This document shows positions 20,207 to 36,560 of a stretch of 64,000 bases of DNA, piece after piece (within the stretch, counting starts at the first letter, position 1; every line of letters starts with the position of its first letter). The DNA comes from Olsenella profusa DSM 13989 (GTDB lineage: Bacteria; Actinomycetota; Coriobacteriia; Coriobacteriales; Atopobiaceae). Position numbers and translations under genes: made by a program. Below the pieces are notes generated by a model that was not told the origin of the DNA, searched no databases, and worked only from the letters and a program-made list of their open reading frames with translations. The DNA lies in NCBI RefSeq assembly GCF_030811115.1, contig NZ_JAUSQK010000001.1, forward strand, positions 1,116,001 to 1,180,000. The letters are read 5' to 3'.

Positions 20207-21277
20207 TTCGATTGCTGCTTCGGCCACGGTGCGGGCGAGTTCACAAGGTACGGCATTCCCAATCTGTCGATACCGTTTGTTCCTCTTGCCTGAGAAGCGA
20301 TAGTCGGCAGGGAACGTCTGGAGAGCCGCGGCCTCTGCGATGCTGAGCCTTCTCAGTGTTGGCGGGATGTTCCCCTCAGCCTCCTGTGGGGTAGTTGAAC
20401 CTGCCAAGAGCCTGTCGTGATAGTCAGCAACCCAGTCGAAGCCTAAGGGGTTTTCAAGCAGGGATTGGTCGATGATGGGCGTGTGGTTTCCGCCCATCTG
20501 AGCCGGGAGCGTCTTGGCGACCACATCGAGTCGCATGGGGCGTCCGCGCCCGTTGAAGAGAAGCGAGCCATCATAGGGGCTTCTGCGAAGTATCGGATTC
20601 TTCGCGAGATGAAGCTCTGCAGTGCTCCCCTCACAATTCCCTGGCATGCCGAATCGAGGAAGGAAACTCAGGGCTTCGCGCACCGTCTTTCCCGGGGTCA
20701 GTCTCGCCTCAAGAGACCTTTCCATATGTGATCTTACGGAATCGGAAGATGCACCTCTTATACCGATGAAGAAGAACCTCTCCCGTGCTTGCGGGACGCC
20801 ATAGTTTGCTGCGTTGAGGATAAAGAAGGAATTGCCGTATCCAAGGTCATTTGCTTCGCTGACCAGTCTCTTGCGTACGTCACTCCACTTGGAGAGCGAA
20901 CCGAGAGCCTTCACATTTTCCATAACGAACATCTTCGGCCGGGTCCTACGGATAACGTCCATGAAGACCCAGATGAGACGGCTCCTCTCGTCATCGGGAT
21001 TCATCTTTCCGGCAACGGAGAAGCCTTGACAAGGTGGGCCGCCATAGACGACGTCGACGTTCGAAAACCCCTCAACCTCCTCAAGGAGACCATAGATATC
21101 TCCGGGATGCATTACCGACGGGTCGAGGTAGGAGGGATTGGACGTATAGGCTTGTACGGCATCTTCATCAAGCTCATTTGCAAAAACGGGAATGATACCT
21201 GCAGATGTGAAGCCGATATCCATGCCACCTGCTCCAGAGAAGAGAGAGATGCCGCTGAGACGCGTGCTATTTGGCAT
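20183..21277 (-). CDS. DNA (cytosine-5-)-methyltransferase
   Basis: This is the modification half of the restriction-modification pair. The 364-residue protein has motif I LFSGAGGMDIGF, the catalytic motif IV GGPPCQGFS with its cysteine, motif VI VMENVKAL, motif VIII QARERFFFIG and motifs IX-X ending RQIGNAVP. It methylates C5 of cytosine in a site that is probably the one cut by its convergent neighbour (GAGCTC if truly SacI-like; inference). The ATG at 21277 follows AAGGGAG with good spacing; an upstream in-frame ATG at 21370 would add 31 unrelated residues. Confidence 0.93.
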   Translation of the reverse strand: MPNSTRLSGISLFSGAGGMDIGFTSAGIIPVFANELDEDAVQAYTSNPSYLDPSVMHPGDIYGLLEEVEGFSNVDVVYGGPPCQGFSVAGKMNPDDERSRLIWVFMDVIRRTRPKMFVMENVKALGSLSKWSDVRKRLVSEANDLGYGNSFFILNAANYGVPQARERFFFIGIRGASSDSVRSHMERSLEARLTPGKTVREALSFLPRFGMPGNCEGSTAELHLAKNPILRRSPYDGSLLFNGRGRPMRLDVVAKTLPAQMGGNHTPIIDQSLLENPLGFDWVADYHDRLLAGSTTPQEAEGNIPPTLRRLSIAEAAALQTFPADYRFSGKRNKRYRQIGNAVPCELARTVAEAAIESLVNLVD

Positions 21278-21528
21278 ACGTACTCCCTTCCTGAGCCTGT
21301 AGGCGGAATTCTGAAGATAGGACAATTCTACAAACATGTGCTCCCCGCGTGTGTGGTAATGGTATCCCACCGCGCGGACATCATCGTTTTGCTAGGGGTT
21401 ACGGGGGCTCCCTCGTGCGCGGCGTTTTGAGCGGAGGGAGCCGACCTGTTGGGAGACTCCCTCCATGCCGCGCCGGGGTAGCAAGCGGCGGACGAAAGCA
21501 AGTGTCTATGGGGACGTGTACGGACCAA

Positions 21529-21702
21529 TTAGGCCACTTGCTGTACGGACGCGAAGAGCCGTCTGAACGGCGGGGGGTCCAGTTCCCGGTACGCGAGGTC
21601 GCGCACTGTGTTCTCGCTCACTTGTATGAGCGCTACCACGTCCTGGATGGTTTAGAAGTCCTTGAGAGGAACCTGCAGCTTGGTCTGTTTGGCTGCTGTC
21701 AT
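21529..21702 (-). pseudogene. Broken small HTH protein
   Basis: Reading from an ATG at 21702, the frame gives MTAAKQTKLQVPLKDF, then a TAA at 21652-21654, then TIQDVVALIQVSENTVRDLA, which looks like an excisionase/MerR-type helix-turn-helix, and a stop at 21529. The domain is therefore interrupted by a nonsense codon. It lies just downstream of another HTH gene in the same direction, a layout often seen next to integrases of mobile islands. The remaining bases between 21,278 and 21,860 show nothing else recognisable. Confidence 0.5.
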
Positions 21703-21859
21703 TGCCGAATCACCCCTTCGGTTGCTCGCCTTACGTCCTCCCCGCAATCAGCGCGGGACGGCAGGCGGCGAGGCGAGCGCGAGGGGGCGTCGAGCCCTGG
21801 GGTTGTGGCGATGTGGCGAGTTTCTCTCGCAAGGGGGCGCGCAGCCATGGGATTCCCGA

Positions 21860-22021
21860 TCAGATGTCGTTGCCCATGGCGCGGAGCGTCTCGTCTAGCT
21901 CGTCTTTCCTGACGCGCAGCAGTCTCCCGATCCTTATGGCGGGAATCTTCTGCCGCTCGATGGGCCTGTAGACCGACGTCTTCGATACGTGCAGGTAGTT
22001 GGCGACCTGCGGCGCGTCCAT
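21860..22021 (-). CDS. Excisionase-type helix-turn-helix protein (N-terminus possibly lost)
   Basis: From the ATG at 22021 the product is 53 residues and begins MDAPQVANYLHVSKTSVYRP; the rest (IPAIRIGRLLRVRKDELDET) completes a classic HTH_17 excisionase fold. The open frame continues upstream without an ATG to about 22,135, near the IS boundary at 22,152, so a longer N-terminus may have been lost. Proteins of this family direct the recombinase toward excision. Related but decayed copies are at about 36,371-36,560 and 43,838-44,040. Confidence 0.65.
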   Translation of the reverse strand: MDAPQVANYLHVSKTSVYRPIERQKIPAIRIGRLLRVRKDELDETLRAMGNDI

Positions 22022-22152
22022 GAGGCCGTCGGGCAGGTCGCTCGCCTCGGATGTCGAGGGGGCGGCAGACCCCAGTATCTCCGCCCCGGCATTCTCGCGA
22101 CTTTCGGAACCATTATCCGATATTGTGTTCTGTCAAGATGATTTGAGCAGAG

Positions 22153-23810
22153 GGGGCCGGTACCGCTTTTCCGTACCTTGCTGCTAGGCTGCGAGGCCCA
22201 AGCTCTGCCTGTATTGTAGGGGGCTCATCGAGCCCAGCGAGCGCTTGATCCTCGTCTTGTTGTAACGCTCTATATAGGCGTCTATCCTCTCCTTGAGCTC
22301 ATCCAACGTGACGCCCGCCCAGTCCCTGCCATAGAGCATCTCGACCTTCATGGTGCCGAAAAAGCCCTCCATGCGGGAGTTGTCAGGGCTGCACCCCTTG
22401 CGCGACATGGAGCGCATGATGCCGGCCTTCTCGCAGATGGAGATCCACTCGGGCCAGCGGTAGTGGCAGCCGCAGTCCGAATGGATCACGAGATGGCGGC
22501 GCTCCTCGTCTGTCGTAGTGGCCAAAGCCGCCTTGAGCATGGAGTTGGCCATCTCGGCGTTGGGCGAGGTCGAGGTCGTCCAGCTTACGATGGCGCCGTC
22601 GAAGCAGTCCAAAACCGGGCTCAGATAGAGCTTGCCGGCCGGTATCGAGAGCTGCGTGACGTCGGTGAGCCATAGGAAGTTGGGAAGTCCGGCTTCGAAG
22701 TCCTGGCAGACCTTGTTGCCGGGGTGTTCCGAGACCTCGCCCTTGTAGGAGCTGTAGGCCTTCCCGGGCTTTGCCTTGCCGTGCGCCTCGAGCTTCTCCT
22801 CAGCCATTATTCGCCCTATCCTGCGCTCGCCGATGACATGTCCTCGTGCCTCGAGCTCGTCGTGGATGCGGCGCCTTCCGTAGGCGCCGTCGTTGGCGTT
22901 GAAGACGGCGCAGACCAGCTCCCGCGCCCCGGCGTCCCTGTCCCCGGCGGCGATGGCCGAGAGTTGGTACTGGTGGCTCGATCGGGCCATGTCGAGCGCC
23001 GAGAGAAGCTCGCACAGCCTCCATTTGGGGCGCAGCGACTCAATCAGCAGAGTCTTCTCCCTGTTCGTGAGCTCGTTTGCCGGGTCGGCGCCCGTCCCTT
23101 TTCCCAGGATCTCGAGGGCGCCCTCCAGGATGTCGCGCTTGAGCTCGAGTTGGCGCAGCTCTTTCTCGAGTTCGGCCTTCCTGGCCTCGAGGGCATCTAT
23201 TTCTGTCTGCGTGACGGGAGCCGCTCTGGCGGCTCCGGCGTCGGACGCGCCATTTGAGACGGCGTTGCTTGTGTCGGGCATCGGGGGCTCCTTCTCAGGC
23301 AATAGCTCTCGCTTCCACTTGTAGAGGGTACAACGCGTGGAGCCGACCTCGTCGGCGATCTGTTGCGCGCTTCCGGCTCGTCTGACAAGCGCTGTCACGG
23401 CTTTCTGCTTCTCTTCGAGAGTGAACGTCCTGGGCTCGGCTGTCCGCCTCTCGCCAGGTGCCAGCTCGTCTATCCACTCTCTGAGCTTTTGCGTACTTCC
23501 GGGGTATCCCAGCTCGCGTCTCGTATAGGCGTTGCAGCGGCCGTGCTCCAGATAGTGGTTGACGGCGGCCCGCCTTTGCCCTTCTGAGTAGCGTTCTAGG
23601 TTGCGCCCCCTGAGCGCGCCTCCGTTGTCCTGCCATTCCCGATACCATCCTACAAGCTGTGCCCGGCTTGGATATCCCAACTCGCGTATCGTAGCCGTGG
23701 CTTTAAAACCATACTTGATATAGAGCTCGACCGCTCTTGTCCTCTGCTCAAGGGAGTACACGCCATCCTCCAAACATCATCGTTTGGTACGGATTTCCGG
23801 TACCGGCCCC
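22153..23810 (-). mobile_element. IS3-family element, copy A (1,658 bp)
   Basis: Both ends carry GGGGCCGGTACCG-type terminal inverted repeats, one continuing GAAATCCGTACC and the other CTTTTCCGTACC. The element has the same length as copy B at 31,671-33,328, lies in the opposite orientation, and encodes an identical transposase, so one copy is recent. GAG flanks both sides on the plus strand (22,150-22,152 and 23,811-23,813). It separates the 5' half of gajB from the rest of that gene. Confidence 0.92.
22184..23773 (-). CDS. IS3-family transposase, copy A
   Basis: The 529-residue single-ORF transposase has repeated N-terminal helix-turn-helix segments (residues 1-150, for example ATIRELGYPSRAQLVGWYRE), a helical region, an HTH_21 segment, and an rve/DDE integrase core: WLTDVTQLSIPAGKLYLSPV holds the first aspartate, VIHSDCGCHYR the second, and the segment around NSRMEGFFGTMKVE the glutamate. 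Most IS3 elements use two frames joined by frameshifting; here one frame covers both parts. It is intact and identical to the copy at 31,708. Confidence 0.93.
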   Translation of the reverse strand: MEDGVYSLEQRTRAVELYIKYGFKATATIRELGYPSRAQLVGWYREWQDNGGALRGRNLERYSEGQRRAAVNHYLEHGRCNAYTRRELGYPGSTQKLREWIDELAPGERRTAEPRTFTLEEKQKAVTALVRRAGSAQQIADEVGSTRCTLYKWKRELLPEKEPPMPDTSNAVSNGASDAGAARAAPVTQTEIDALEARKAELEKELRQLELKRDILEGALEILGKGTGADPANELTNREKTLLIESLRPKWRLCELLSALDMARSSHQYQLSAIAAGDRDAGARELVCAVFNANDGAYGRRRIHDELEARGHVIGERRIGRIMAEEKLEAHGKAKPGKAYSSYKGEVSEHPGNKVCQDFEAGLPNFLWLTDVTQLSIPAGKLYLSPVLDCFDGAIVSWTTSTSPNAEMANSMLKAALATTTDEERRHLVIHSDCGCHYRWPEWISICEKAGIMRSMSRKGCSPDNSRMEGFFGTMKVEMLYGRDWAGVTLDELKERIDAYIERYNKTRIKRSLGSMSPLQYRQSLGLAA

Positions 23811-24255
23811 GAGTGAGCTTTGCGGATTTTAAAGCGGCTTCAACTTGTTCTCGCGTTTCCTTATTGCAATTCAGCGTCTGAGCATTCCTTCTAACCCAAT
23901 CAAAGCCGGCAACTTCCCAGGTTTTGTCTATGCCCACAACGCCTCCGTGCGCTTTTATGATTCGTGCGGCCAAACCATGGAAGTTGCATACGGTAACGTG
24001 TTCTCTTAGCGTTTTGGTATCAATGTACTTTCTAAGCCTCTCGCTAATATTGTCTCGAGCTTGATTGGTGAAGGAGACAATAAGCAGCCTTCTCCCGTTC
24101 CCTGAAAAATCGTATCGCTCAAGGAGGCCTTTTGCCCTGTAGGCAAGCGCTTCGGTTTTACCGCACCCAGCAGGCGCGGTAATCACCATGCCATAAGGCT
24201 CGTAATCGAAAATCTCCTGCTGCTCATCAGTAGCTCCGTAAGAATTAGATGGCAT
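23811..24255 (-). pseudogene. gajB: gajB 5' fragment (UvrD-like helicase, Gabija)
   Basis: About 148 codons of a superfamily 1 helicase remain, with Walker A APAGCGKTEAL, motif Ia LLIVSFTNQARDNISERL, and the segment TVCNFHGLAARIIKAHG. The ATG at 24255 overlaps the end of gajA by 11 bp, so the two were translationally coupled. The frame runs into IS copy A after Lys-Leu-Thr. The missing remainder is at 33,329-34,614 on the other strand. Joined across one CTC triplet, the two give one uninterrupted frame of about 575 codons. Confidence 0.85.
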
Positions 24256-25840
24256 TTCGGAGCACCTCGATGACACTGGAAACCCGTTGTGCAGAGGCCT
24301 CATCTAGCAACTTGCAAGCAACAACAGCACTGAGAATTTTATTTTTCTTACGCCTGCAGAACTCTGCAAGTTCATCTTCATTGGGTTTTCCCGAGTCATC
24401 TAAGATGGTGCAGGTATTCAGCATGTTTTGCGTGAACAGGCTCGATTCCCCCAATGCCTTCCATAGGCTATCCGCACCAATAGCTGCTACGTACTCCTCC
24501 TCAAGATCACGCCTTGATACATAAACAAATTTTGACGCTAGGTCTTCTTTATTGGCTCCTAACGCATTGGCCATATCTTCTTCAGCGTCTTCATCAACCA
24601 AGATGCTGATCTGGAGGCAGAACCCGTCTTCTCCAAAGATTTCTAAGACATGCGGCATCTCCCTGCATCCACCGGCTTCGAGGATTTCAATACCGTCTCT
24701 TTCAAGATGACACCCCGTGTTCCCTGCTACCTTTTCGAGCAGCATCCTATCCGATTGCCCCTCGACCGCTATAATCTGTTTCGCCGTCAGAAGCTCAATC
24801 CTGCTGCTTATCCACCACCTTGCAAGAGTCTTCTGATCTTCTTGACCCGCGAGGAAACCTCGCTTCGGCTGCACGGGAGAAAACCCTTCGCGAGTAACCG
24901 CGATGTTGTCGGGTTCGAATTCGCCAGCAACAACCCCAGAATGCGTGGCTATGACAAGCTGCCGCCCCGTACTCTTCAGAATGCGTATCAAGTTTCTCTG
25001 GGCCAATGGGTGCAAGTGGGTTTCCGGCTCATCAATGGCAATCATCCCGCCCGAATTAAGCAGGCCAAAGATGGAAAAGGCGATAAGGGCTTTGGTGCCG
25101 TCAGACTGTTCTGTCGCCTGGCGAGCAGTTCCAGACCTGCCCTCAATCTGAAGCCGGACGTTATTCAACAGATCCCCATTGATTGCGGCTTCGGGGACGA
25201 AGTGAAGCTTGTTTGCCGTAATGCCTCCGTCGAGCACGGGGTCAAGCTGATCTGCAAGGGAACCCAATGCTTCATTGAAGGCATCTGATCCGTCAATCGC
25301 ATCACTGAGAGACTTGATGGCCTCAGCTAATTTCGATTCATCTCCAGAGGCATCCACCTCTTTGAGGTAGTCGTCTACGATGGTCTTCCTACCTGGCTCA
25401 AGTTGAGTGGTTGAAAAATCGGAAGGAATCATGCTCCATCCGATGCTCTCAAGCTGCTCTCGCCTTAAATTATTATCGCCAGCGCCCTTTGGAAAGTATC
25501 GCCTAATCGTGAGATCGTCTTTGTCCAGAGTAGCTTCCATGCGAACAGTCAACGAGTTGTCTAATGCATCGTAATCATCTGGAAAAAACGACAACTCATC
25601 TTCGCTGAGCCCTTCTAGCCTAACTTCAACAGCAAAAGGTTGCTCCTCGTCCTCGAAGTCAGAGTTGTCGATGGAGTAATACAGCTGCTGTGTTGTCTTG
25701 CCAAGCGCCAGATCTATGCACCTTATGATTGAGCTTTTTCCGCTGCCATTTGCTCCTACCAATATCAAGTTGTCTCTGACATCGATGGTGCAGTTGGGAA
25801 TCCTGCTGTGGTTGTTTATGCGGATGGATGTAATTTTCAT
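24245..25840 (-). CDS. gajA: GajA-like OLD-family ATPase-nuclease (Gabija)
   Basis: In Gabija defence, GajA is a DNA-nicking endonuclease whose ATPase domain senses nucleotide depletion. The 531-residue product has Walker A LVGANGSGKSSI near residue 30, Walker B MIAIDEPETHLHPLAQ, the switch histidine region VIATHSGVV, and a C-terminal TOPRIM domain with IIAVEGQSDRMLLEKV and VDEDAEED as metal ligands. A UvrD-type helicase start overlaps its 3' end, the arrangement that defines Gabija. It is intact, but its partner is severed, so function is doubtful. Composition is AT-rich compared with the core. Confidence 0.87.
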   Translation of the reverse strand: MKITSIRINNHSRIPNCTIDVRDNLILVGANGSGKSSIIRCIDLALGKTTQQLYYSIDNSDFEDEEQPFAVEVRLEGLSEDELSFFPDDYDALDNSLTVRMEATLDKDDLTIRRYFPKGAGDNNLRREQLESIGWSMIPSDFSTTQLEPGRKTIVDDYLKEVDASGDESKLAEAIKSLSDAIDGSDAFNEALGSLADQLDPVLDGGITANKLHFVPEAAINGDLLNNVRLQIEGRSGTARQATEQSDGTKALIAFSIFGLLNSGGMIAIDEPETHLHPLAQRNLIRILKSTGRQLVIATHSGVVAGEFEPDNIAVTREGFSPVQPKRGFLAGQEDQKTLARWWISSRIELLTAKQIIAVEGQSDRMLLEKVAGNTGCHLERDGIEILEAGGCREMPHVLEIFGEDGFCLQISILVDEDAEEDMANALGANKEDLASKFVYVSRRDLEEEYVAAIGADSLWKALGESSLFTQNMLNTCTILDDSGKPNEDELAEFCRRKKNKILSAVVACKLLDEASAQRVSSVIEVLRNAI

Positions 25841-25946
25841 TGTTCTGCTGTCCCTTGCACCTACGCAAAGCAGGTGTTGTTAATTAGTTTGTAAGTACAA
25901 ACATTATCGTTCAAAACGATTGCATTGCGTGTCTGAGAGCGGAAAG

Positions 25947-25975
25947 CGGCAGACCCCCGCCGCTCTTTTTTTCAT
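25947..25975 (+). terminator. Hairpin with T-run upstream of gajA
   Basis: AGCGGC and GCCGCT pair around a short loop and are followed by seven T residues on the plus strand. It points away from gajA (which is transcribed on the minus strand), so it would end transcription coming from the left; no such plus-strand gene lies to its left now. This fits a segment that has been moved or inverted. Confidence 0.5.
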
Positions 25976-25984
25976 CAGTCCGCA

Positions 25985-26222
25985 ACCTAGCGAGCTTTAG
26001 CGTGGCCTAACGTCCCGTGTGGCTTTGCGCACGCGCCCCCCAACAGGTATCTCTCTGCTTGTCCCGTCGAAAGGACGAGACTCCTTGGGCCTCGTTGCGA
26101 CCCGAGGGCACCAGATGCAAGACGAGAGGACGGTAGGCCACCCCATGAGAGACGACATCCTCCAGATGCCACGCAACGCGTTCCCGGCGCCCACCGGAAT
26201 ATCGGTGTTGATGTTCACTAAG
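25985..26222 (-). repeat. Dispersed island repeat, copy at 26.0-26.2 kb
   Basis: Read on the minus strand, this roughly 220-bp stretch matches 36,561-36,783 over nearly its full length with scattered changes (both include GTGGCATCTGGAGGATGTCG and GAGGCCCAAGGAGTC). A more decayed relative lies at 48,573-48,715. It holds no convincing gene. The copy here is reversed relative to the other two, which agrees with the proposed inversion of this segment. Confidence 0.7.
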
Positions 26223-26234
26223 AAGTGACGCAAA

Positions 26235-27702
26235 GGGACTGCGGTGGAAATCCTGGACCAAGGCAGGACCGGGAGGAACACGCAGATGTACGGCAAGGAG
26301 CAGAGAAGGAAGGCCATCGAGACCTTCGCCAGGTTCGACCATAGCTACGCGGACACTGTTGCTGAGCTGGGCCATCCCACCACTTCGGCATTGCGCGGGT
26401 GGTGGAAGGAGCACCAGCTCCACGGTGACGAGTTCCTGGAGAAGAGCTGCCGCAAGCCGAAGTGCCCCGACGAGAAGAAGCAGGCGGCTGTTGACTACTA
26501 CCTGGAGCACGGAAAAAGCCTCACACGGACGATAGGGGCCATGGGGCATCCAAGCCGCGAGATGCTCGGCACCTGGATTGACGGGCTCGCGCCCGGCCAG
26601 AGGAAATGCCGCGGGCCGAATCCCAAGAAGGGCGCTCTGCCGATGGAGACGAAGGCGCGGGCCGTGGCGGAGCTCGAGGCACGGGCCGGCAGTGCCGCCG
26701 AGGTTGCCGAGCGCCACGGCGTGTCCCGCGTCGCACCCTATGCCTGGCGGCGAGAGATCCTGGGGCACAATGAGGGGAACCCCGAAGAGAAAGGGGTCCC
26801 CGCGAGCAAGCCCTACGATGATCTGCCGGATGGCATTCGCGAGCTAGAGAGGATGCAGCCCGACCTGAGGGCGCGGGTCAGGAAGCTTCAACTCGAGATA
26901 GACGTGCGCCAGGCGACGCTCGAGATCCTAAAAAAAGAACCGGGCACCGACCCGAACCGGCTGACGAACGCGGAAAGGGCGGCGACAGCCTCGCCGCTGC
27001 GTCCGAAGTGGAGGCTCAAGGACCTGCTGGCGCTGATGCAGATGGCGAAGAGCAGCTATGAATACGCGGCTGCCGCCCTGGTACGACCTGGGAGCGCGGA
27101 GCGCGCCGAGTCGAGGGCCGCCGTCATCAAAGCGTTCGACGACAGCGGCGGCACGCACGGCTACCGCAGGATCGTCGCCCAGACGGGCGCTGGGGGGTGG
27201 ACCGTGCGGACGATCATGGACAAGGAGGGCCTCGTCGCCCGCACCGCAAAGAAGAAGCGCCGCTACAGCTCCTACCAGGGGGAGGCATCCGAGGCGCCGG
27301 ACGACCTGCTGCGCGACGAGCGCGGGAAGCACCACCTCAAGTCCGAGAAGCCGAACGAGCTCTGGGTGACGGACGTCACGGAGTTCCGTATCCCCGCCGG
27401 CAAGCCCTACCTCTCCCCGATAATCGGCTGCTTCGACGGCATGCCGATAAGCTGGACGATATCGACCTCCCCGAACGCCGAGATGGCGAACTCGTCGCTT
27501 ATGGGCGCATGTGCCCAGCTCAGGGAGGGCGAGCATCCCAAGGGGCACAGCGACCGAGGCTGCCACTACCGCTGGCCCGAGTGGATCAAGATATGCGATG
27601 ACCACGGCATCGTGAGGTCGATGCCGAGGGAGGGGTGCAGTCCCGACAACGCGAGGGCGGAAGGGTTCTTCGGAAGGCTGAAGATAGAGTTCTTCTACGG
27701 AT
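26235..27702 (+). mobile_element. Second IS3-family element, cut by IS21
   Basis: The left end near 26,235 (GCGGTGGAAATCCTGGACC) resembles the ends of the 1,658-bp IS3 copies. The right end is missing because an IS21-type end begins at 27,703, inside the transposase gene. The element is related to, but clearly divergent from, copies A and B. Confidence 0.75.
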
Positions 27703-27710
27703 GTGTTTGA
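26286..27710 (+). pseudogene. IS3-family transposase, 3'-truncated
   Basis: The frame starts MYGKEQRRKAIETFARF and keeps the HTH repeats, HTH_21 and most of the rve core (ELWVTDVTEFRIPAGKPYLS, HSDRGCHYR, ARAEGFFGRLKIEFFYG). It then enters IS21 DNA and stops after two foreign residues, losing about 40 C-terminal residues found in copies A and B. An A7 run at about 26,931 (CTAAAAAAAGAA) sits where IS3 elements usually shift frame, although here the reading frame is continuous. Confidence 0.85.
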
Positions 27711-27751
27711 TAGCCTCTCAGTTGCGGGTTTGAGCACCGAAGTCTTTCGGG

Positions 27752-30307
27752 TCTGAGCACGAAAATCTTTCGCATGTGTGCATGGGCACGCCGACCACCC
27801 GTTGATGTGGCCTACCTTTGTCGATGCGTCCGTTTTCGACACGAGGAGGCCAAGAGAGGATGATCGGCGTGGACAAGATCGAGGACATCAGGAGGATGTG
27901 GAGGAGAGGCGTCTCGGTGGCTGACATCGCGCGAGCCGCCGGCGTGTCCGAGCCCACGGTGCGCAAGCACAGGGACATGGAGGACCTGTCGCCGGAGCCG
28001 CCCAGAAGGACGGGGGGCGAGAGCGAGCTGCTCGCGCCCTATGCCGGCACCATCGACAGGTGGCTCGCCGACGACGCCAGGCACTGGAGGAGGCAGCGCC
28101 ACACGGCCGTGCGCGTGTACGTGCGTCTGAGGGACGAGGAGGGCTACGACGGGTCGTACTCGACTGTGCAGAGGTACGTGAGGAGGCGCCGCGGGGAGAT
28201 GGCCCGCGAGGCGGACCAGAGGGACGCCCAGGGCTTCCTGCAGCTGGACTGGCTCGCCGGCGAGTGCCAGGTCGACTTCGGCCAGGCGGACTCCGGGGTG
28301 AGGGGCGCGCTCACGCGCGGCCACTGCCTCGCGGTGAGCTTCCCGCACCCCGACGTGGGCCTCACGCAGGTCTTCTGGGGCGAGGCCGCCGAGTGCGTGC
28401 GCGAGGGGCTCGCGGGCGTCCTCGCGTTCGTGGGCGGCGTGCCCGCGCGCGCGGTGCTCGACAACGCGACGGAGGTCGGCAGGAGGGTGTGCGGGGAGGT
28501 GCGCACCAGCGAGCTCTTCAGGCTGTTCGCCGCCCACTACGGGCTCGACCACGCCCTCGCCGACCCCTACTCGGGCAACGAGAAGGGCAACGTCGAGAAC
28601 GAGGTCGGCTGCCACAGGCGCGACGCCTTCGTCCCGGTCCCGAGCTTCCACGACGTCAGGGCCTTCGACCGGCGCCTGCTCGCGGACTGCCTGGACATGA
28701 GCGACAAGCCCCACTACCGCCTCGGCACCCCCGAGCCCGAGCTGTTCGAGGAGGACAGGGCCGCCCTGCGCGAGCTGCCGCCCGCCGCCTTCTCGTGCGC
28801 GAGGTGGGAGGTCCGCAGGTGCAGCAGGCAGGGCGTGTTCACGATGGGCGGCGTCCACCGCTACTCCGCGGGCCCCGCCTACGCCCGCGGGGAGGCCAAC
28901 GTCGCGCTCGGCGCCTTCGACGTCACGGTGGTCGACCAGGAGACCGGCGAGGTGGTCGCCACCTACGAGCGGGAGTGGGGCGACGCGCCAACCGACTCGT
29001 CGGACCCCATGCTGCAGCTCAAGCTGCTGTCTGAGCACGAAAATCTTTCGCATGTGTGCATGGGCACGCCGACCACCCGTTGATGTGGCCTACCTTTGTC
29101 GATGCGTCCGTTTTCGACACGAGGAGGCCAAGAGAGGATGATCGGCGTGGACAAGATCGAGGACATCAGGAGGATGTGGAGGAGAGGCGTCTCGGTGGCT
29201 GACATCGCGCGAGCCGCCGGCGTGTCCGAGCCCACGGTGCGCAAGCACAGGGACATGGAGGACCTGTCGCCGGAGCCGCCCAGAAGGACGGGGGGCGAGA
29301 GCGAGCTGCTCGCGCCCTATGCCGGCACCATCGACAGGTGGCTCGCCGACGACGCCAGGCACTGGAGGAGGCAGCGCCACACGGCCGTGCGCGTGTACGT
29401 GCGTCTGAGGGACGAGGAGGGCTACGACGGGTCGTACTCGACTGTGCAGAGGTACGTGAGGAGGCGCCGCGGGGAGATGGCCCGCGAGGCGGACCAGAGG
29501 GACGCCCAGGGCTTCCTGCAGCTGGACTGGCTCGCCGGCGAGTGCCAGGTCGACTTCGGCCAGGCGGACTCCGGGGTGAGGGGCGCGCTCACGCGCGGCC
29601 ACTGCCTCGCGGTGAGCTTCCCGCACCCCGACGTGGGCCTCACGCAGGTCTTCTGGGGCGAGGCCGCCGAGTGCGTGCGCGAGGGGCTCGCGGGCGTCCT
29701 CGCGTTCGTGGGCGGCGTGCCCGCGCGCGCGGTGCTCGACAACGCGACGGAGGTCGGCAGGAGGGTGTGCGGGGAGGTGCGCACCAGCGAGCTCTTCAGG
29801 CTGTTCGCCGCCCACTACGGGCTCGACCACGCCCTCGCCGACCCCTACTCGGGCAACGAGAAGGGCAACGTCGAGAACGAGGTCGGCTGCCACAGGCGCG
29901 ACGCCTTCGTCCCGGTCCCGAGCTTCCACGACGTCAGGGCCTTCGACCGGCGCCTGCTCGCGGACTGCCTGGACATGAGCGACAAGCCCCACTACCGCCT
30001 CGGCACCCCCGAGCCCGAGCTGTTCGAGGAGGACAGGGCCGCCCTGCGCGAGCTGCCGCCCGCCGCCTTCTCGTGCGCGAGGTGGGAGGTCCGCAGGTGC
30101 AGCAGGCAGGGCGTGTTCACGATGGGCGGCGTCCACCGCTACTCCGCGGGCCCCGCCTACGCCCGCAGGGAGGCCAACGTCGCGCTCGGCGCCTTCGACG
30201 TCACGGTGGTCGACCAGGAGACCGGCGAGGTGGTCGCCACCTACGAGCGGGAGTGGGGCGACGCGCCAGCCGACTCGTCGGACCCCATGCTGCAGCTCAA
30301 GCTGCTG
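27752..30307 (+). repeat. 1,278-bp tandem duplication inside IS21
   Basis: Bases 27,752-29,029 are repeated at 29,030-30,307 with only a few differences (for example Gly to Arg at one codon, and CAACCGACT versus CAGCCGACT). The unit runs from just inside the left end to a point two-thirds through istA. The first unit joins the second directly at CTGCTG/TCTGAG. The near identity indicates a recent event. Confidence 0.9.
27860..29083 (+). pseudogene. istA: IstA transposase, truncated first copy
   Basis: This copy is nearly identical to the first 390 or so residues of the istA at 29,138: HTH (VSVADIARAAGVSEPTVRKH), then the DDE domain starting QLDWLAGECQVDFGQADSG. It ends in foreign residues because the second duplicated unit begins within it. 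It lacks the C-terminal region and cannot be a full transposase. The start is ATG at 27,860 after GAGGAGGCCAAGAGAGG. Confidence 0.85.
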
Positions 30308-31399
30308 TGCATGAGGCCCGCCGGCTGGCGCGACGGCATCGTGAGGATGTCCCTGCCCGGCGAGCTCGTCGCACACCTGGACGGCGAGGACGCCCCGGGC
30401 CCGGGGCGCGACCTGCGCATCCTCAGGGACGAGGCCGGCGCCCACGGGTTCGCCAGCGCCGTCGAGGCCATGGCCGAGTCCCTGTCCGCGACGGGCGGCA
30501 TAGACGCCGCGACCGTCGGCCTCTCCGCGGCGCGCATCGCCTCGGGGGAGGCGCGCCGCGAGTACGGCGAGGACGTCGACCTCGGGGCCTACGACCGCGC
30601 GTTCGGGCTGGTGGAGGGGGGCGCCGGCGATGCAGCCTGGCAGCAGGCAGAGGTCGGAGGCCGAGGGCCTCCTCCGCGCGTGCGCGCGTGCGCTCTTCAT
30701 ATCTTGCGACTCCATAGACGCGTTCCTCGGCAGGGCCACCCCGGGCCAGCTCGCCGCCTGCACGTCGCTGCTCGAGGACGAGCTGTCGCACAGGGAGCGC
30801 GCCAAGCGCGGGCGGCTCCTCAGGCAGGCGGGGTTCCCCGTCCCCGAGACGCTCGGGGGCTTCGACTGGCCCAACGTCAGGCTCCCAGACGGCTGGGGCG
30901 CCGACGAGATGCGCAGCCTCTCGTTCGTGGACGCAGCGGAGGACCTCGTGTTCTTCGGGAAGACGGGCAGGGGCAAGTCGCATGCCTCGATAGGCCTTGG
31001 CACGGCCGCCGTGGCCGCCGGCACCCCCGTGCGGTCCTACCAGACCGCGCGGCTGGTGCTCGCCCTCGGGAAGGCGAAGCGCGACGGCACGCTCGACAGG
31101 GTTCTCGCGGACGTCGCGAAGGCCCGGCTGGTGATCCTGGGCGAGTTCGGCCACGTGCCCTTCGACGTGGACGGCGCGCGGCCGCCCTGCCAGGTCATAT
31201 CCGACAGCCACGAGTGCCGGAGCATCGTGTTCACCACCAACGTGGAGTTCTCCAGGTGGGGCACGGTCCTCGCGGGCGACGAGCTGGCCGCGGCGATCGT
31301 CGACAGGGTCGCGCGCCACGGCAGGCTCGTGGAGTTCGGCGGGCCCAGCCACAGGCTGGAGAACTCGCTGATGCTCGGGAAGGGAGGCGAGTGACGTGA
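29138..31399 (+). CDS. istA: IstA transposase, second copy, reading through istB
   Basis: The IstA part is about 500 residues: HTH at residues 13-35, an rve/DDE core with VDFGQADSG, ARAVLDNATEV and GNEKGNVENEVG, and a C-terminal Mu-type domain. IstA normally ends close to the istB start; here the frame has no stop at about 30,640 and stays open to 31,399, antiphase to istB. The extra 250 codons are arginine/alanine-rich and look like a shadow of istB, so the true stop may have been lost. The start after GAGGAGGCCAAGAGAGG is well supported. Confidence 0.75.
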   Translation: MIGVDKIEDIRRMWRRGVSVADIARAAGVSEPTVRKHRDMEDLSPEPPRRTGGESELLAPYAGTIDRWLADDARHWRRQRHTAVRVYVRLRDEEGYDGSYSTVQRYVRRRRGEMAREADQRDAQGFLQLDWLAGECQVDFGQADSGVRGALTRGHCLAVSFPHPDVGLTQVFWGEAAECVREGLAGVLAFVGGVPARAVLDNATEVGRRVCGEVRTSELFRLFAAHYGLDHALADPYSGNEKGNVENEVGCHRRDAFVPVPSFHDVRAFDRRLLADCLDMSDKPHYRLGTPEPELFEEDRAALRELPPAAFSCARWEVRRCSRQGVFTMGGVHRYSAGPAYARREANVALGAFDVTVVDQETGEVVATYEREWGDAPADSSDPMLQLKLLCMRPAGWRDGIVRMSLPGELVAHLDGEDAPGPGRDLRILRDEAGAHGFASAVEAMAESLSATGGIDAATVGLSAARIASGEARREYGEDVDLGAYDRAFGLVEGGAGDAAWQQAEVGGRGPPPRVRACALHILRLHRRVPRQGHPGPARRLHVAARGRAVAQGARQARAAPQAGGVPRPRDARGLRLAQRQAPRRLGRRRDAQPLVRGRSGGPRVLREDGQGQVACLDRPWHGRRGRRHPRAVLPDRAAGARPREGEARRHARQGSRGRREGPAGDPGRVRPRALRRGRRAAALPGHIRQPRVPEHRVHHQRGVLQVGHGPRGRRAGRGDRRQGRAPRQARGVRRAQPQAGELADAREGRRVT
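30630..31394 (+). CDS. istB: IstB helper ATPase of IS21
   Basis: IstB is the AAA+ regulator that loads on target DNA and activates IstA. The 254-residue product has Walker A FFGKTGRGKSHASIGLG, the segment RLVLALGKAKRDG, and sensor-like FTTNVEFSRWG. The Walker B position reads LVILGEFGHVPFD, where the family has an aspartate (IIDEFGYVP): glycine replaces the metal-binding aspartate, so ATPase activity may be impaired. The ATG at 30,630 lies within the 3' part of istA. Otherwise the length is normal. Confidence 0.85.
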   Translation: MQPGSRQRSEAEGLLRACARALFISCDSIDAFLGRATPGQLAACTSLLEDELSHRERAKRGRLLRQAGFPVPETLGGFDWPNVRLPDGWGADEMRSLSFVDAAEDLVFFGKTGRGKSHASIGLGTAAVAAGTPVRSYQTARLVLALGKAKRDGTLDRVLADVAKARLVILGEFGHVPFDVDGARPPCQVISDSHECRSIVFTTNVEFSRWGTVLAGDELAAAIVDRVARHGRLVEFGGPSHRLENSLMLGKGGE

Positions 31400-31590
31400 G
31401 GGAGAAGCCCGGGGCGCGCCGCGCCTCGTGCCCCATCTGGGACCTCGACGACTGGGTGCTGGAGCACCACGACGTCGTGACGCTCTGCAGGGGCTTCGAC
31501 TGCCCCGAGTGCGTCGCGGACCCGGAGGAGCTGGGGCCGACCGGGCCCCCTGCGCCGCCGGACCCCGGCGTCCGCGAGGTCCCGTTCTAG
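31396..31590 (+). CDS. Small cysteine-containing passenger ORF of IS21
   Basis: A GTG start directly after istB opens a 64-codon frame with the segments CPIWDLDDWVLEHHD and CRGFDCPECVAD, a possible metal-binding CxxC with a further cysteine upstream. The residue mix is not the arginine/alanine shadow pattern, so it may be real. I do not recognise the family. Confidence 0.4.
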   Translation: MREKPGARRASCPIWDLDDWVLEHHDVVTLCRGFDCPECVADPEELGPTGPPAPPDPGVREVPF

Positions 31591-31670
31591 GAGGTTGCAA
31601 GGGTCGGCGGGTCCGTGCGCAAACCCGCAAAAGTTTCGTGCCCGGACCCGAAACCTTTCGATGCTCAAAC

Positions 31671-33328
31671 GGGGCCGGTACCGGAAATCCGTACCAAACG
31701 ATGATGTTTGGAGGATGGCGTGTACTCCCTTGAGCAGAGGACAAGAGCGGTCGAGCTCTATATCAAGTATGGTTTTAAAGCCACGGCTACGATACGCGAG
31801 TTGGGATATCCAAGCCGGGCACAGCTTGTAGGATGGTATCGGGAATGGCAGGACAACGGAGGCGCGCTCAGGGGGCGCAACCTAGAACGCTACTCAGAAG
31901 GGCAAAGGCGGGCCGCCGTCAACCACTATCTGGAGCACGGCCGCTGCAACGCCTATACGAGACGCGAGCTGGGATACCCCGGAAGTACGCAAAAGCTCAG
32001 AGAGTGGATAGACGAGCTGGCACCTGGCGAGAGGCGGACAGCCGAGCCCAGGACGTTCACTCTCGAAGAGAAGCAGAAAGCCGTGACAGCGCTTGTCAGA
32101 CGAGCCGGAAGCGCGCAACAGATCGCCGACGAGGTCGGCTCCACGCGTTGTACCCTCTACAAGTGGAAGCGAGAGCTATTGCCTGAGAAGGAGCCCCCGA
32201 TGCCCGACACAAGCAACGCCGTCTCAAATGGCGCGTCCGACGCCGGAGCCGCCAGAGCGGCTCCCGTCACGCAGACAGAAATAGATGCCCTCGAGGCCAG
32301 GAAGGCCGAACTCGAGAAAGAGCTGCGCCAACTCGAGCTCAAGCGCGACATCCTGGAGGGCGCCCTCGAGATCCTGGGAAAAGGGACGGGCGCCGACCCG
32401 GCAAACGAGCTCACGAACAGGGAGAAGACTCTGCTGATTGAGTCGCTGCGCCCCAAATGGAGGCTGTGCGAGCTTCTCTCGGCGCTCGACATGGCCCGAT
32501 CGAGCCACCAGTACCAACTCTCGGCCATCGCCGCCGGGGACAGGGACGCCGGGGCGCGGGAGCTGGTCTGCGCCGTCTTCAACGCCAACGACGGCGCCTA
32601 CGGAAGGCGCCGCATCCACGACGAGCTCGAGGCACGAGGACATGTCATCGGCGAGCGCAGGATAGGGCGAATAATGGCTGAGGAGAAGCTCGAGGCGCAC
32701 GGCAAGGCAAAGCCCGGGAAGGCCTACAGCTCCTACAAGGGCGAGGTCTCGGAACACCCCGGCAACAAGGTCTGCCAGGACTTCGAAGCCGGACTTCCCA
32801 ACTTCCTATGGCTCACCGACGTCACGCAGCTCTCGATACCGGCCGGCAAGCTCTATCTGAGCCCGGTTTTGGACTGCTTCGACGGCGCCATCGTAAGCTG
32901 GACGACCTCGACCTCGCCCAACGCCGAGATGGCCAACTCCATGCTCAAGGCGGCTTTGGCCACTACGACAGACGAGGAGCGCCGCCATCTCGTGATCCAT
33001 TCGGACTGCGGCTGCCACTACCGCTGGCCCGAGTGGATCTCCATCTGCGAGAAGGCCGGCATCATGCGCTCCATGTCGCGCAAGGGGTGCAGCCCTGACA
33101 ACTCCCGCATGGAGGGCTTTTTCGGCACCATGAAGGTCGAGATGCTCTATGGCAGGGACTGGGCGGGCGTCACGTTGGATGAGCTCAAGGAGAGGATAGA
33201 CGCCTATATAGAGCGTTACAACAAGACGAGGATCAAGCGCTCGCTGGGCTCGATGAGCCCCCTACAATACAGGCAGAGCTTGGGCCTCGCAGCCTAGCAG
33301 CAAGGTACGGAAAAGCGGTACCGGCCCC
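31671..33328 (+). mobile_element. IS3-family element, copy B (1,658 bp)
   Basis: This copy is the same length as copy A, in the opposite orientation, with the same GGGGCCGGTACCG-type ends. The left flank is AAC (end of the IS21 DNA) and the right flank is CTC, so the two sides do not form a matching target duplication. The right side abuts the 3' half of gajB, whose 5' half abuts copy A. Confidence 0.92.
31708..33297 (+). CDS. IS3-family transposase, copy B
   Basis: The 529-residue product is identical in sequence to the transposase of copy A, with the same HTH segments and rve core (WLTDVTQLSIPAGKLYLSPV, VIHSDCGCHYR, SRMEGFFGTMKVE). Both copies therefore appear functional. The identity over the whole element makes homologous recombination between the two inverted copies likely. 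Confidence 0.93.
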   Translation: MEDGVYSLEQRTRAVELYIKYGFKATATIRELGYPSRAQLVGWYREWQDNGGALRGRNLERYSEGQRRAAVNHYLEHGRCNAYTRRELGYPGSTQKLREWIDELAPGERRTAEPRTFTLEEKQKAVTALVRRAGSAQQIADEVGSTRCTLYKWKRELLPEKEPPMPDTSNAVSNGASDAGAARAAPVTQTEIDALEARKAELEKELRQLELKRDILEGALEILGKGTGADPANELTNREKTLLIESLRPKWRLCELLSALDMARSSHQYQLSAIAAGDRDAGARELVCAVFNANDGAYGRRRIHDELEARGHVIGERRIGRIMAEEKLEAHGKAKPGKAYSSYKGEVSEHPGNKVCQDFEAGLPNFLWLTDVTQLSIPAGKLYLSPVLDCFDGAIVSWTTSTSPNAEMANSMLKAALATTTDEERRHLVIHSDCGCHYRWPEWISICEKAGIMRSMSRKGCSPDNSRMEGFFGTMKVEMLYGRDWAGVTLDELKERIDAYIERYNKTRIKRSLGSMSPLQYRQSLGLAA

Positions 33329-34614
33329 CTCACTTGTCTGATGATGAAGTAATGAGAAGCCTTCAGGAACAGGCAAAGAATGGAGCGGTTGGCCAGCTTG
33401 CGGTGGCCATGGAAAGCAAAAGGGTCGAAGCGCGTGTCGTCACCTATGACGATCAAATACGAACCGCTCTGTGGGTACTGCAGGATGATAAAGTCGCCCG
33501 GCTTTATCAGAACCATTTCTTTGCTGCGCTTGTGGACGAGTTTCAGGACTTGACCCCCCAGCAATTGCGACTGGTCAAAGCCCTGTGTGGAGACAACATT
33601 ACTTTCGCCGGTGACCTCGCGCAGAGCATCTTCTCTTTTGCTGGAGCGGATCCTGACTATACCTATCAAGAGATTTCTAACAGTACGAACAAGCAGATAA
33701 AGCTCTTGAAATCTTTCCGTTCAGCACCTGCCGTCCTTAATGCAGTTAACTCGCTTTCCCAAATGACACACAGTGAGCAACTTGTGGCCGCCTTTCCCAA
33801 TCATTGGGGTAACAGTGGGCTCTCAGCATTTGCCTCCTTTGATAATGAGAGGACTGAAGCAAGTTGGATTGTCAAAATGGCACAGAGGATTTTGCAACTT
33901 TGCCCAAATCAGCGCGTTGGAGTCATCACTAGAGTCGGCTTCAGGATAAAAGGCGTAAAAGATACGCTGGCTGCAAATGGAATCCAGTATACCGACTGGT
34001 CGAGTGGCATATTCAGGCCGGAAATCGCGAGAGCCCTTCGACATACATGCGATGACCTGTTAAGTAGAGCTACAGAGGGTATTAGTTTCAAAAGCAAGCT
34101 AGATATCTACCGATACATAGTTGAAAGAACAACTTTGCTGCAGAGCGGTACGCATGCGGAACTTGAAGATGCCTGCTCCTGGCTATTTGACCAGGTATTG
34201 GAAAGAGACGCTAACCTGTCCCGGGCATCTGAAATAAGGGAAAGCATTTGCGAGATGCGAGGCGATGAGAGCTTTGCGACGCGCAAGGGCATACATTGCT
34301 TAACGGGTCATACTGGCAAAGGACAACAGTTCGATTGGGTGTTCATAGTCGGGCTTGATAAAGGCTCAATTCCCTTTTACAAAGCTTCTACCGATCAAGA
34401 GATTGGAGAAGAGGCACGAGTTCTCTCTGTAATGATTTCACGTGCAAGGATTGGATTTGTTACAACTTCCACGGAAATCAATGCATACGGATACTCTAGG
34501 GAGCCATCATCTTTTCTTTCATTGCTTCAAAGTGCTCCAGGTTTTATCTGTGGGAGCGACTGCATAGTAGATTGGTGCGCCAAAGCAGATTGGCAAGGCA
34601 TATCGAAAATATAG
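33329..34614 (+). pseudogene. gajB: gajB 3' fragment (UvrD-like helicase, Gabija)
   Basis: The fragment runs directly out of IS copy B. It holds Walker B FFAALVDEFQDLTPQQL, motif III FAGDLAQSIFSFAGADP, motif IV LKSFRSAPAVLNAV, motif V HTGKGQQFDWVFIVG and motif VI RVLSVMISRARIG. These are exactly the helicase motifs missing from the 5' fragment at 23,811-24,255. With the CTC triplet counted once, the codons read Lys-Leu-Thr-His-Leu-Ser-Asp, in frame across the junction. A TTG at 33,334 could start a headless product without Walker A. Confidence 0.85.
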
Positions 34615-34667
34615 CGATGCCTACTTGCCAATGCCGCTGTTGAGGAAATATTGCTTCTTCAAAGAGT

Positions 34668-35004
34668 GTAGTCAGTTGTATGCAATAGAAACTCATTTCC
34701 CCAGCTCAAAGCCGTCACTCTTCACTCGGAATTTGTCACTCTTGGGTCGGGGAGCGCCCCACCCCGTTTGCGCCTCATCAGCCCATGTAGTCAGTTGCGC
34801 GCAATCGAACTGTGTTTCCGCAGTTCAGACATATCACTCCTCGGTCGGTCGAAAATACTCTCCTCAAGTGACTACAGAGCATGTGGTCACCACTGACTAC
34901 AGGGTGACTACACGGTTTTCGAGATAGGAGAATGGGGGAAATCCCAGCTCACTCGCCCCGCTGACTACATGGAGATGGGCTATGCAACGATCGAGTGGGA
35001 GTAA
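34668..35004 (+). other. att arm and guaA-like core, site 2
   Basis: This gene-free stretch carries TGACTAC four times (34,869; 34,894; 34,905; 34,962) and its complement GTAGTCA twice (34,668; 34,787). It ends in a core at 34,984-35,004 that still spells Ala-Thr-Ile-Glu-Trp-Glu-stop with different codons (GCAACGATCGAGTGGGAG). This layout resembles a tyrosine-recombinase attachment site with arm-type sites. A closely similar block lies at 37,690-38,012. Confidence 0.75.
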
Positions 35005-35018
35005 AAAATTCGGAAAAA

Positions 35019-35048
35019 TTGACGCTTGCGTCATAGATACCGTATCAT
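35019..35048 (+). promoter_or_regulatory. Candidate promoter for the DUF4143 ATPase gene
   Basis: TTGACG at 35,019 and TATCAT at 35,043 are 18 bp apart, 30 bp before the GTG start of the downstream gene. GACGCTTGCGTC in the spacer is self-complementary and might be a repressor site. Confidence 0.5.
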
Positions 35049-35077
35049 TACCTTGCATGCAGAGGAGATGATTCGGT

Positions 35078-36364
35078 GTGGAGATCAGACGCGACAAGTA
35101 TCTGAACGACCTCGTCGTCCGCAAGGGCAACGGAATGATCAAGATCGTCACGGGCATAAGGCGCTGCGGAAAAACCTATCTGGTGTTTGACTTGTTCGTC
35201 CGCCATCTCATCGAGTCAGGAGTTTCAGAAGACCACATAATCACATTGGCTCTCGACGACAGGGCTAACGCGCGCTACCGAGATGTCGACGCTCTCTATG
35301 ACTATCTCATGGAGAGGATCGGCAACGATCGAGGGGTCTACTACATCCTCCTTGACGAGATACAGTACGCCATCACGGCGAAGGAGCTCAGGAGCAAGGA
35401 CGAGCCCCCCGCGCTCTACGGCGTGCTCAACGGCCTGCTTCATCGTCGTAACGTCGACGTTTACGTGACTGGGAGTAACTCCAAGCTGCTCTCCACGGAC
35501 GTGATGACCGAGTTCAGGGGTAGGGGCGACGAGGTGCGCATCCACCCGCTGACCTTCGCGGAGTTCATGCAGGCGTTCGACGGCGACCGTCAGGAGGGCT
35601 GGGCCGAGTACGTCATGTACGGCGGGCTGCCCCTCGTGCTCTCCATGAGGACTCCTGAGCAGAAGGCCGTCTACCTTGCGAGCCTTTTCGATGAGGCCTA
35701 TCTCTCGGACGTTGTCGAGCGAAACCACCTCACCAAGTCGCAGGAGCTCGAAGATTTAGTGGACGTGCTCGCTTCCTCCATCGGAGCCCTCACGAACCCT
35801 TCGAAGATCGAGGCGACGTTCAGGAGCGAGCTGCGCTCGAAACTCGACGCCGACACCATCAGGCGCTATCTCGGACATCTTGAAGAGGCGTTCCTCGTGA
35901 GCGAGGCGACCCGCTACGACGTGAAGGGGCGCAGGTACATCGGCACGCCCAAGAAGTACTACTTCGAGGACATGGGGCTCCGGAACGCACGGCTGGGGTT
36001 CAGGCAGGTCGAGGAGTCGCACATTATGGAGAACGTCATCTACAACGAGCTGCGCGCCCGGGGGTTCTCTGTGGATGTCGGCGTGGTGGACAGGCGCATG
36101 AAAAACAACGGTCGTGACGAGCGCTGCCGCTACGAGGTGGACTTTGTGGCGAACCTCGGCTATCGCCGTTACTACATCCAGTCTGCGCTGCAGCTCGATA
36201 CCCCTGAGAAGGTCGCGCAGGAAAAGCGTTCGCTCACGCTCATCGACGACAGCTTCAGGAAGATCGTGGTGGTAAACCGCGTCATGCGGCCCTACATGGA
36301 CGACGACGGCATCCTTACCATGGGGCTGTTCGATTTCCTGCTCGACCCAAACAGCCTCGACTGA
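35078..36364 (+). CDS. DUF4143-type AAA ATPase
   Basis: The 428-residue protein belongs to the AAA_14/DUF4143 group: Walker A IVTGIRRCGKTYLVFDL at residues 22-38, Walker B YYILLDEIQYA, the sensor-like VYVTGSNSKLLS, then AYLSDVVERNHL and a C-terminal DUF4143 domain (KYYFEDMGLRNARLGFRQVE) ending in a nuclease-like EVDFVANLG. The biological role of the group is not established; members are common in accessory DNA of gut bacteria. GTG start with GAGGAG ten bases upstream. A broken relative lies at 54,557-55,511. Confidence 0.85.
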   Translation: MEIRRDKYLNDLVVRKGNGMIKIVTGIRRCGKTYLVFDLFVRHLIESGVSEDHIITLALDDRANARYRDVDALYDYLMERIGNDRGVYYILLDEIQYAITAKELRSKDEPPALYGVLNGLLHRRNVDVYVTGSNSKLLSTDVMTEFRGRGDEVRIHPLTFAEFMQAFDGDRQEGWAEYVMYGGLPLVLSMRTPEQKAVYLASLFDEAYLSDVVERNHLTKSQELEDLVDVLASSIGALTNPSKIEATFRSELRSKLDADTIRRYLGHLEEAFLVSEATRYDVKGRRYIGTPKKYYFEDMGLRNARLGFRQVEESHIMENVIYNELRARGFSVDVGVVDRRMKNNGRDERCRYEVDFVANLGYRRYYIQSALQLDTPEKVAQEKRSLTLIDDSFRKIVVVNRVMRPYMDDDGILTMGLFDFLLDPNSLD

Positions 36365-36370
36365 TGGGTG

Positions 36371-36560
36371 CATGCTCTGGCGGGGATCTTCTGCCGCTCG
36401 ATGGGCCTGTAGGCCGACGTCTTCGATACGTGCGGGTAATCGGCGACCTGCGGCACGTCCATGAGGCCGTCGGGCAGGTCGTTCGCTTCCGATGCCGAGG
36501 AGGCGGCAGATCTTTAGCTTCTCCGCCCCGGCATTCTCGCGGCCTTCCGCATCATTATCC
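36371..36560 (-). pseudogene. Remnant of excisionase-like HTH gene
   Basis: The minus strand encodes a piece matching the HTH protein at 21,860-22,021 (including a stretch corresponding to SVYRP and MDVPQVADY) plus its upstream region, with the C-terminal third missing and small changes. It does not form a continuous start-to-stop gene. It lies 7 bp after the DUF4143 gene and joins the repeat at 36,561. Confidence 0.6.

What the first reader, a model, noticed from the sequence alone, without database searches (positions are those of the whole stretch)
22153..34614. Gabija-like helicase gene split and separated by IS insertion plus inversion
gajA is intact, but gajB is in two parts: motifs I and Ia at 23,811-24,255 (minus strand) and motifs II-VI at 33,329-34,614 (plus strand). 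Each part abuts one copy of an inverted pair of identical 1,658-bp IS3 elements. Reverting the inversion and removing one IS with one CTC triplet gives Lys-Leu-Thr-His-Leu-Ser-Asp in frame and a protein of about 575 residues. This reconstructs a step-by-step inactivation: IS insertion (3-bp duplication CTC), then recombination between IS copies.
Basis: partly seen in the sequence, partly recalled or inferred. Interest (0 to 1): 0.85.

Follow-up and report, generated by a model that had tools for sequence, protein, structure and literature searches.

The report
Jumping gene broke a phage-defence gene
In this bacterium (Olsenella profusa) a mobile DNA element landed in one of the two genes of the Gabija anti-phage system, and recombination between copies of that element then flipped half the system around; another strain of the species still has the whole gene, so the damage can be read step by step, but it is an ordinary kind of gene loss.

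Summary
The window is from Olsenella profusa. It holds an intact gajA and a gajB split into a 5' part (23,811-24,255, minus) and a 3' part (33,329-34,614, plus), each abutting one of two identical, inverted 1,658-bp IS3-family elements. Strain F0195 of the same species has gajB uninterrupted: 575 codons, reading Lys-Leu-Thr-His-Leu-Ser-Asp at the join, and it differs from the joined flanks (one CTC removed) at 2 of 1,728 bases. Both fragments hit one GajB model, at positions 2-144 and 148-564. Gabija is therefore predicted to be inactive here. Reversing the inversion would not restore it, because the IS would remain in the gene.

The partner IS copy has no matching target duplication. F0195 shows its outer flank is a truncated terminus of a different IS21-family element. 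At least three insertions, one deletion (or equivalent exchange) and one inversion are needed.

Found on the way: the IS (13 copies here; none found in F0195) inserts almost always exactly 29 nt inside IS21-family termini. This also holds for relatives in two other genera. gajB carries only the inner half of that site (GCTCA-NNN), so it looks like an off-target hit.

The parts
24245..25840 (-). gajA, intact, 531 aa (ABC/AAA ATPase + OLD-type TOPRIM)
   Evidence: PADLOC PDLC00075 864 bits; Pfam AAA_21, AAA_15, OLD-like_TOPRIM; Walker A 29-36, DEPE 270, VEGQSD 359, LVDED 414 present
23811..24255 (-). gajB 5' part: 148 codons, helicase motifs I and Ia; overlaps the end of gajA; runs on into the IS to make a 201-residue product
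   Evidence: PDLC00121 positions 2-144, 254 bits; product length; 100% identical protein in F0195
33329..34614 (+). gajB 3' part: helicase motifs II-VI to the stop
   Evidence: PDLC00121 positions 148-564, 639 bits; motifs; 100% identical protein in F0195
22153..23810 (-). IS copy A (IS3 family, single 529-aa transposase frame), abuts the gajB 5' part
   Evidence: identical to copy B; NCBIfam transpos_IS3 352 bits, cut-off 160
31671..33328 (+). IS copy B, abuts the gajB 3' part
   Evidence: 13 near-identical copies in the genome
23811..23813 (-). CTC, one half of the target duplication of the gajB insertion
   Evidence: flanks; single CTC in the empty site of F0195
33329..33331 (+). CTC, other half of the target duplication of the gajB insertion
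23811..31670 (.). interval inverted relative to F0195 (gajB 5' part, gajA, IS3-like relic, IS21 element)
   Evidence: F0195 is colinear: L012 205-4093 = window 27701-23811 and L012 4091-7491 = window 33329-36729
22124..22152 (+). 29-bp stub of a truncated IS21-family terminus next to IS copy A; F0195 continues here into a longer IS21-family element
   Evidence: tip motif at 22124; F0195 C69 reads ...TTTGAGCAGAG then TGGGCAGCAG... with an istB-like frame beyond
31646..31670 (+). inner half of an IS21-family terminus cut by an IS insertion with AAC duplication (tip side lost)
   Evidence: 25 bp identical to the inner flank of IS copies L001 and L003, whose other flank is AAC + IS21 tip
27702..31670 (+). 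IS21-family element inserted in the IS3-like relic; carries an internal tandem duplication
   Evidence: tip TGTGTTTGATAGCC at 27702; istA/istB; F0195 relic continues across 27701
26244..27701 (+). relic of a different IS3-family transposase (41% identical), adjacent to gajA also in F0195
35078..36364 (+). AAA_14/DUF4143 gene downstream of gajB, same neighbour in F0195
   Evidence: Pfam; L012 colinearity

Best explanation
A working two-gene Gabija system (gajA-gajB, overlapping frames) was inactivated in this O. profusa lineage when an IS3-family element of 1,658 bp inserted in gajB at GCTCA-CTC and duplicated CTC. The gene is cut between helicase motifs Ia and II, so no product has both the ATP-binding motif (Walker A) and motif II, and Gabija should be off because GajA and GajB are each needed in vivo. 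The element normally inserts at one fixed point 29 nt inside IS21-family termini; gajB carries only the inner half of that site and looks like an off-target. Two other copies sat in neighbouring IS21-family termini. Recombination between those two in direct orientation (deletion) and between one of them and the gajB copy in inverted orientation (inversion) produced the present order. Shown: the split, the identical ISs, the intact allele and empty site in F0195, colinearity of F0195, the site preference. Inferred: order of events, deletion as the mechanism, loss of function.
For: Intact same-species allele with the exact predicted join, 2 of 1,728 nt different. Both fragments are complementary parts of one GajB profile, and no second gajB exists in the genome. 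F0195 is colinear across gajA-gajB-AAA_14, so the window is the derived, inverted form. 13 near-identical IS copies here, none found in F0195. After undoing the inversion the gajB insertion has CTC/CTC and the partner AAC/CTC. The F0195 sequence at the partner's outer flank has CTC at an IS21 terminus, and the other half matches intact AAC insertions elsewhere in the genome. The IS3-like relic 3' end and the IS21-family body next to the stub, both present in F0195, are missing from this locus, as a deletion predicts. Fixed site 29 nt from the IS21 tip. GajA and GajB each essential in vivo: PMC10781630, PMC10681800.
Against: The two IS copies are identical and 1.66 kb long, so the inversion, though not the insertion, could be an assembly choice; no reads were available. 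F0195 is a draft in 70 contigs, and whether its contigs C69 and C71 are neighbours is unknown, so the deletion step could instead be a longer-range exchange. Loss of defence was not measured. The duplication CTC is unlike the A/T-rich duplications of most other copies.
Confidence: 0.9

Rival explanations
1. Only the IS insertion in gajB is real; the inversion is an assembly error at two identical inverted repeats.
For: The two possible pairings of flanks differ only by the orientation of the 7.9-kb interval between identical 1,658-bp copies, a classic short-read ambiguity.
Against: The genome is one closed 2.6-Mb contig with 13 near-identical copies, which is hard to reach without long reads. 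Ten of 13 copies carry matching 3-bp flanks, so the assembly has not shuffled flanks widely.
Confidence: 0.12
2. One-step inversion: a donor IS copy moved into gajB within the same molecule in a replicative way, making insertion, duplication of the IS and inversion in one event.
For: It gives exactly the observed flanks from a donor with AAC/CTC: the CTC repeats end up one at each copy, facing opposite ways (derivation).
Against: IS3-family elements move through circular copy-out/paste-in intermediates (PMC3299598, abstract listed), not by replicative co-integration. Many identical copies make ordinary recombination sufficient, and other copies with two IS21 tips and unmatched repeats show such recombination happens.
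Confidence: 0.08
3. A reversible switch: inversion between the IS copies turns Gabija on and off.
For: Inverted identical repeats flank the interval, so it could flip back.
Against: Flipping back restores only gajB-IS-gajB, still interrupted by 1,658 bp with stop codons in frame; an intact gene also needs precise loss of the IS and one CTC.
Confidence: 0.01
4. The two gajB parts still work as a split protein with GajA.
For: Both parts are identical in protein sequence to F0195, GajA is intact and its two changes fall at variable positions, so no decay is visible yet.
Against: The cut lies inside the first helicase domain between motif Ia and II, the 5' product gains about 53 foreign residues, and the 3' part has no natural start region. 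Absence of decay is expected because the IS copies are identical and the event recent.
Confidence: 0.03

Closest known systems
Gabija (GajA OLD-family nuclease + GajB UvrD-like SF1 helicase)
   Same: Gene order, overlapping frames, domain content and best PADLOC models; intact allele in strain F0195
   Different: gajB is interrupted and split to opposite strands in this strain
IS inactivation of immunity genes, e.g. natural IS insertions in cas genes (PMC10359306)
   Same: A defence gene is knocked out by an IS and passed on
   Different: Here a Gabija helicase gene, an IS3-family element, and a following inversion and deletion between IS copies
IS5075/IS4321 in Tn21-family termini with accidental insertion in ureC (PMC8269217)
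   Same: An element that normally sits in the terminal repeats of another mobile element hits a host gene that resembles the target
   Different: IS5075 belongs to the IS1111/IS110 group and targets Tn21-family termini; this one is IS3 family with a 3-bp duplication and targets IS21-family termini; the gajB site matches only five inner bases
Elements with set targets such as REP sequences (PMC1525189, abstract only)
   Same: An IS with a defined, repeated target
   Different: Target here is 29 nt inside IS21-family termini; I found no description of this in the papers searched

Membership tests
Gabija | GajA: ABC/AAA ATPase domain plus OLD-type TOPRIM | tested here: met
   Pfam AAA_21, OLD-like_TOPRIM; PDLC00075 864 bits over the whole protein
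Gabija | GajB: UvrD-like SF1 helicase encoded next to gajA | tested here: met
   UvrD-helicase and UvrD_C; PDLC00121 matched by both parts; intact and adjacent in F0195. In the window strain it is not one gene
Gabija | Functional GajA-GajB complex giving phage resistance | not testable with these tools
   Predicted absent here because both proteins are required in vivo (PMC10781630)
IS3 family | IS3-type transposase above the curated cut-off | tested here: met
   NF033516 352 bits against cut-off 160
IS3 family | Terminal inverted repeats and a short (3-5 bp) target duplication | tested here: met
   Ends GGGGCCGGTACCG.../...CGGTACCGGCCCC; 3-bp flanks match in 10 of 13 copies
IS3 family | Two overlapping frames joined by programmed frameshift (usual, not universal) | tested here: not met
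   Single open frame of 529 aa. Usual in IS3 members but not required by the NCBIfam model, whose transposase test is met; so I file it as IS3 family by transposase, an atypical one in this respect
IS21 family (neighbouring elements) | istA transposase with istB helper ATPase | tested here: met
   NF033546 210 bits, cut-off 160; IstB 179 bits, just below its cut-off of 200

The most novel reading that the evidence does not exclude
The IS belongs to a branch of the IS3 family that is site-specific for IS21-family termini (insertion 26-29 nt from the tip). It uses other insertion sequences as safe harbours, stacks copies there and so drives deletions of IS21 bodies and local inversions; the Gabija hit is an off-target of that specificity.
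Probability: 0.65. Interest if true: 0.5.

Novelty: new member of a known kind. Interest (0 to 1): 0.38.

Why it matters
It gives a natural same-species pair (intact gajAB in F0195, broken in the window strain) in which each step of the loss can be read from flanking bases. IS inactivation of immunity genes is known for CRISPR-Cas, so this is a further, well resolved case for Gabija. The fixed insertion point of the IS inside IS21-family termini is the more reusable result. It makes a testable claim about target choice in the IS3 family and explains why this genome carries recombining stacks of mobile elements.

Tried and rejected
Reading copy A's CTC/CTC flanks as its own target duplication: rejected, because F0195 shows its two flanks come from different loci. 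Reading the event as a simple inversion between two intact insertions: rejected, because copy B's left flank is AAC plus an IS21 inner end, which matches neither partner. Signs of decay in gajA: two amino-acid changes against F0195 (R377C, G408C) lie at variable columns in 13 homologues, so none. A second gajB that could complement: none; the other hits are long UvrD/Rep- or AddA-like frames. Structure prediction was not run: sequence identity with F0195 and the profiles already settle the family. Literature searches for an IS3-family element targeting IS21 ends found nothing on point; that is not proof of novelty, since subscription papers and ISfinder were not searched.

Full report
What was checked. 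The two IS copies are at 22153-23810 (minus) and 31671-33328 (plus), 1,658 bp, identical. gajA is an intact 531-aa frame. The gajB 5' part (23811-24255, minus) carries motifs I and Ia, and the 3' part (33329-34614, plus) carries motifs II-VI. PADLOC assigns GajA to PDLC00075 (864 bits) and both gajB parts to the same model PDLC00121, at positions 2-144 and 148-564 of 565. That two fragments 9 kb apart on opposite strands tile one profile without overlap, each ending at the same kind of IS, is far beyond chance.

A scan of 84,980 genomes found the same species, Olsenella profusa F0195 (L012, NZ_AWEZ01000071.1; also G039:C71), with a 100% match to the 3' part. There gajB is one frame, 575 aa from the ATG that overlaps gajA. 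The join reads AAGCTCACTCACTTGTCTG, i.e. Lys-Leu-Thr-His-Leu-Ser, as predicted. The flanks of the window, joined in a script with one CTC dropped, differ from F0195 at 2 of 1,728 nt, neither changing the protein. F0195 is colinear from the IS3-like relic through gajA and gajB to the AAA_14/DUF4143 gene, so the window strain is the inverted, derived form. The nearest other relative, Bifidobacterium apri, also has an uninterrupted gajB with the matching stretch Lys-Leu-Ser-His-Leu-Ser-Asp at the join.

History. In the orientation of the IS, copy A now reads gajB-5'-CTC|IS|CTC-tgctcaaatcatc and copy B reads gatgctcaAAC|IS|CTC-gajB-3'. Inversion by recombination between inverted copies exchanges the left flanks. 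Undone, the gajB insertion is CTC|IS|CTC, a proper 3-bp duplication, and the partner is AAC|IS|CTC, which is not. The partner's two halves can each be traced. Its CTC side is the 29-bp terminus of an IS21-family element that in F0195 continues past GAG/CTC into TGGGCAGCAG and an istB-like frame. Its AAC side is the inner end of another IS21-family element and is identical over 25 bp to two other IS copies whose far side is AAC plus an IS21 tip. So two insertions in IS21-family termini were joined by loss of what lay between them. The 3' end of the IS3-like relic, present in F0195, is gone from this locus; the only long match in the genome is a different copy, 84% identical. Least history: three insertions, one deletion (or equivalent exchange), one inversion. 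The order is not fixed by the data.

Why gajB. The IS has 13 near-identical copies in the closed genome and none was found in F0195 (a draft, so absence is likely rather than certain). Ten of the 13 have an IS21-type tip (TGTGTTY...) exactly 29 nt from an IS end, and copy B has the inner half of such a site. With the gap left free between 2 and 31, a pattern search of 140 genomes of the family gave 21 tip-to-IS junctions in seven genomes of three genera. Eighteen were at 29 nt, three at 30 nt, and none appeared in the reversed control pattern. In most sites the bases just inside are TGAGC (GCTCA on the other strand) next to the 3-bp duplication. gajB has GCTCA-CTC at the same offset; a GCTCA or TGAGC anywhere within 14 nt occurs at about 6% of random positions in the window. 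So gajB looks like an imperfect off-target. This parallels IS5075, whose normal target is Tn21-family termini and which hits ureC because of its similarity (PMC8269217).

Function. GajA and GajB are each essential for defence in vivo although GajA alone cuts DNA in vitro (PMC10781630; PMC10681800). Here the 5' part yields at most a 201-residue product with Walker A but no motif II, and the 3' part lacks Walker A. No second gajB exists in the genome. Gabija is therefore predicted inactive. gajA shows no decay, as expected for a recent event. The locus is not a switch: reversing the inversion leaves the IS in the gene.

Limits. No reads were available, so the inversion (not the gene break) could be an assembly choice. 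F0195 contigs C69 and C71 are not shown to be neighbours. Loss of defence and the target rule are inferences from sequence.

Verdict. The finding is correct and well resolved, but of an ordinary kind: IS inactivation of a defence gene plus IS-mediated rearrangement. The site-specific habit of the IS is the part most likely to interest a specialist.

Noticed in passing
window 22153-23810, 31671-33328; L001-L011; L089, L090: The 1,658-bp IS and its 73-78% identical relatives insert exactly 29 (rarely 30) nt from the tip of IS21-family termini, with a 3-bp duplication, in at least three genera.
   Followed up: yes
L005, L009 and L090 (G116:C9:67969-69667): IS copies with an IS21-type tip on both sides facing outwards; in L005 and L009 the 3-bp flanks are unmatched. 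They look like remnants of an IS21 element whose body was lost by recombination between IS copies in its two termini; they might still be movable by IS21 transposase.
   Followed up: partly
window 27751-29028 and 29029-30306: The IS21-family element next to gajA carries a 1,278-bp tandem duplication of its istA region; the second copy alone matches four other full copies in the genome.
   Followed up: partly
window 19100-21370: Type II restriction enzyme-like gene (PDLC03473) beside a C5 cytosine methyltransferase gene, near the broken Gabija: a small defence island; the region 16000-22157 is 99.8% identical in F0195.
   Followed up: no
window 36730-46000: The stretch to the right of the Gabija locus has no close match in F0195 (only 68-82% pieces beyond about 36780), so it is strain-variable; homology to the F0195 Gabija contig stops at 36729 next to a repeated ~140-bp sequence also found at 26064-26205.
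   Followed up: partly
window 34696-34992 and 37703-37999: A 297-bp direct repeat, 82% identical, downstream of gajB; nature unknown.
   Followed up: no
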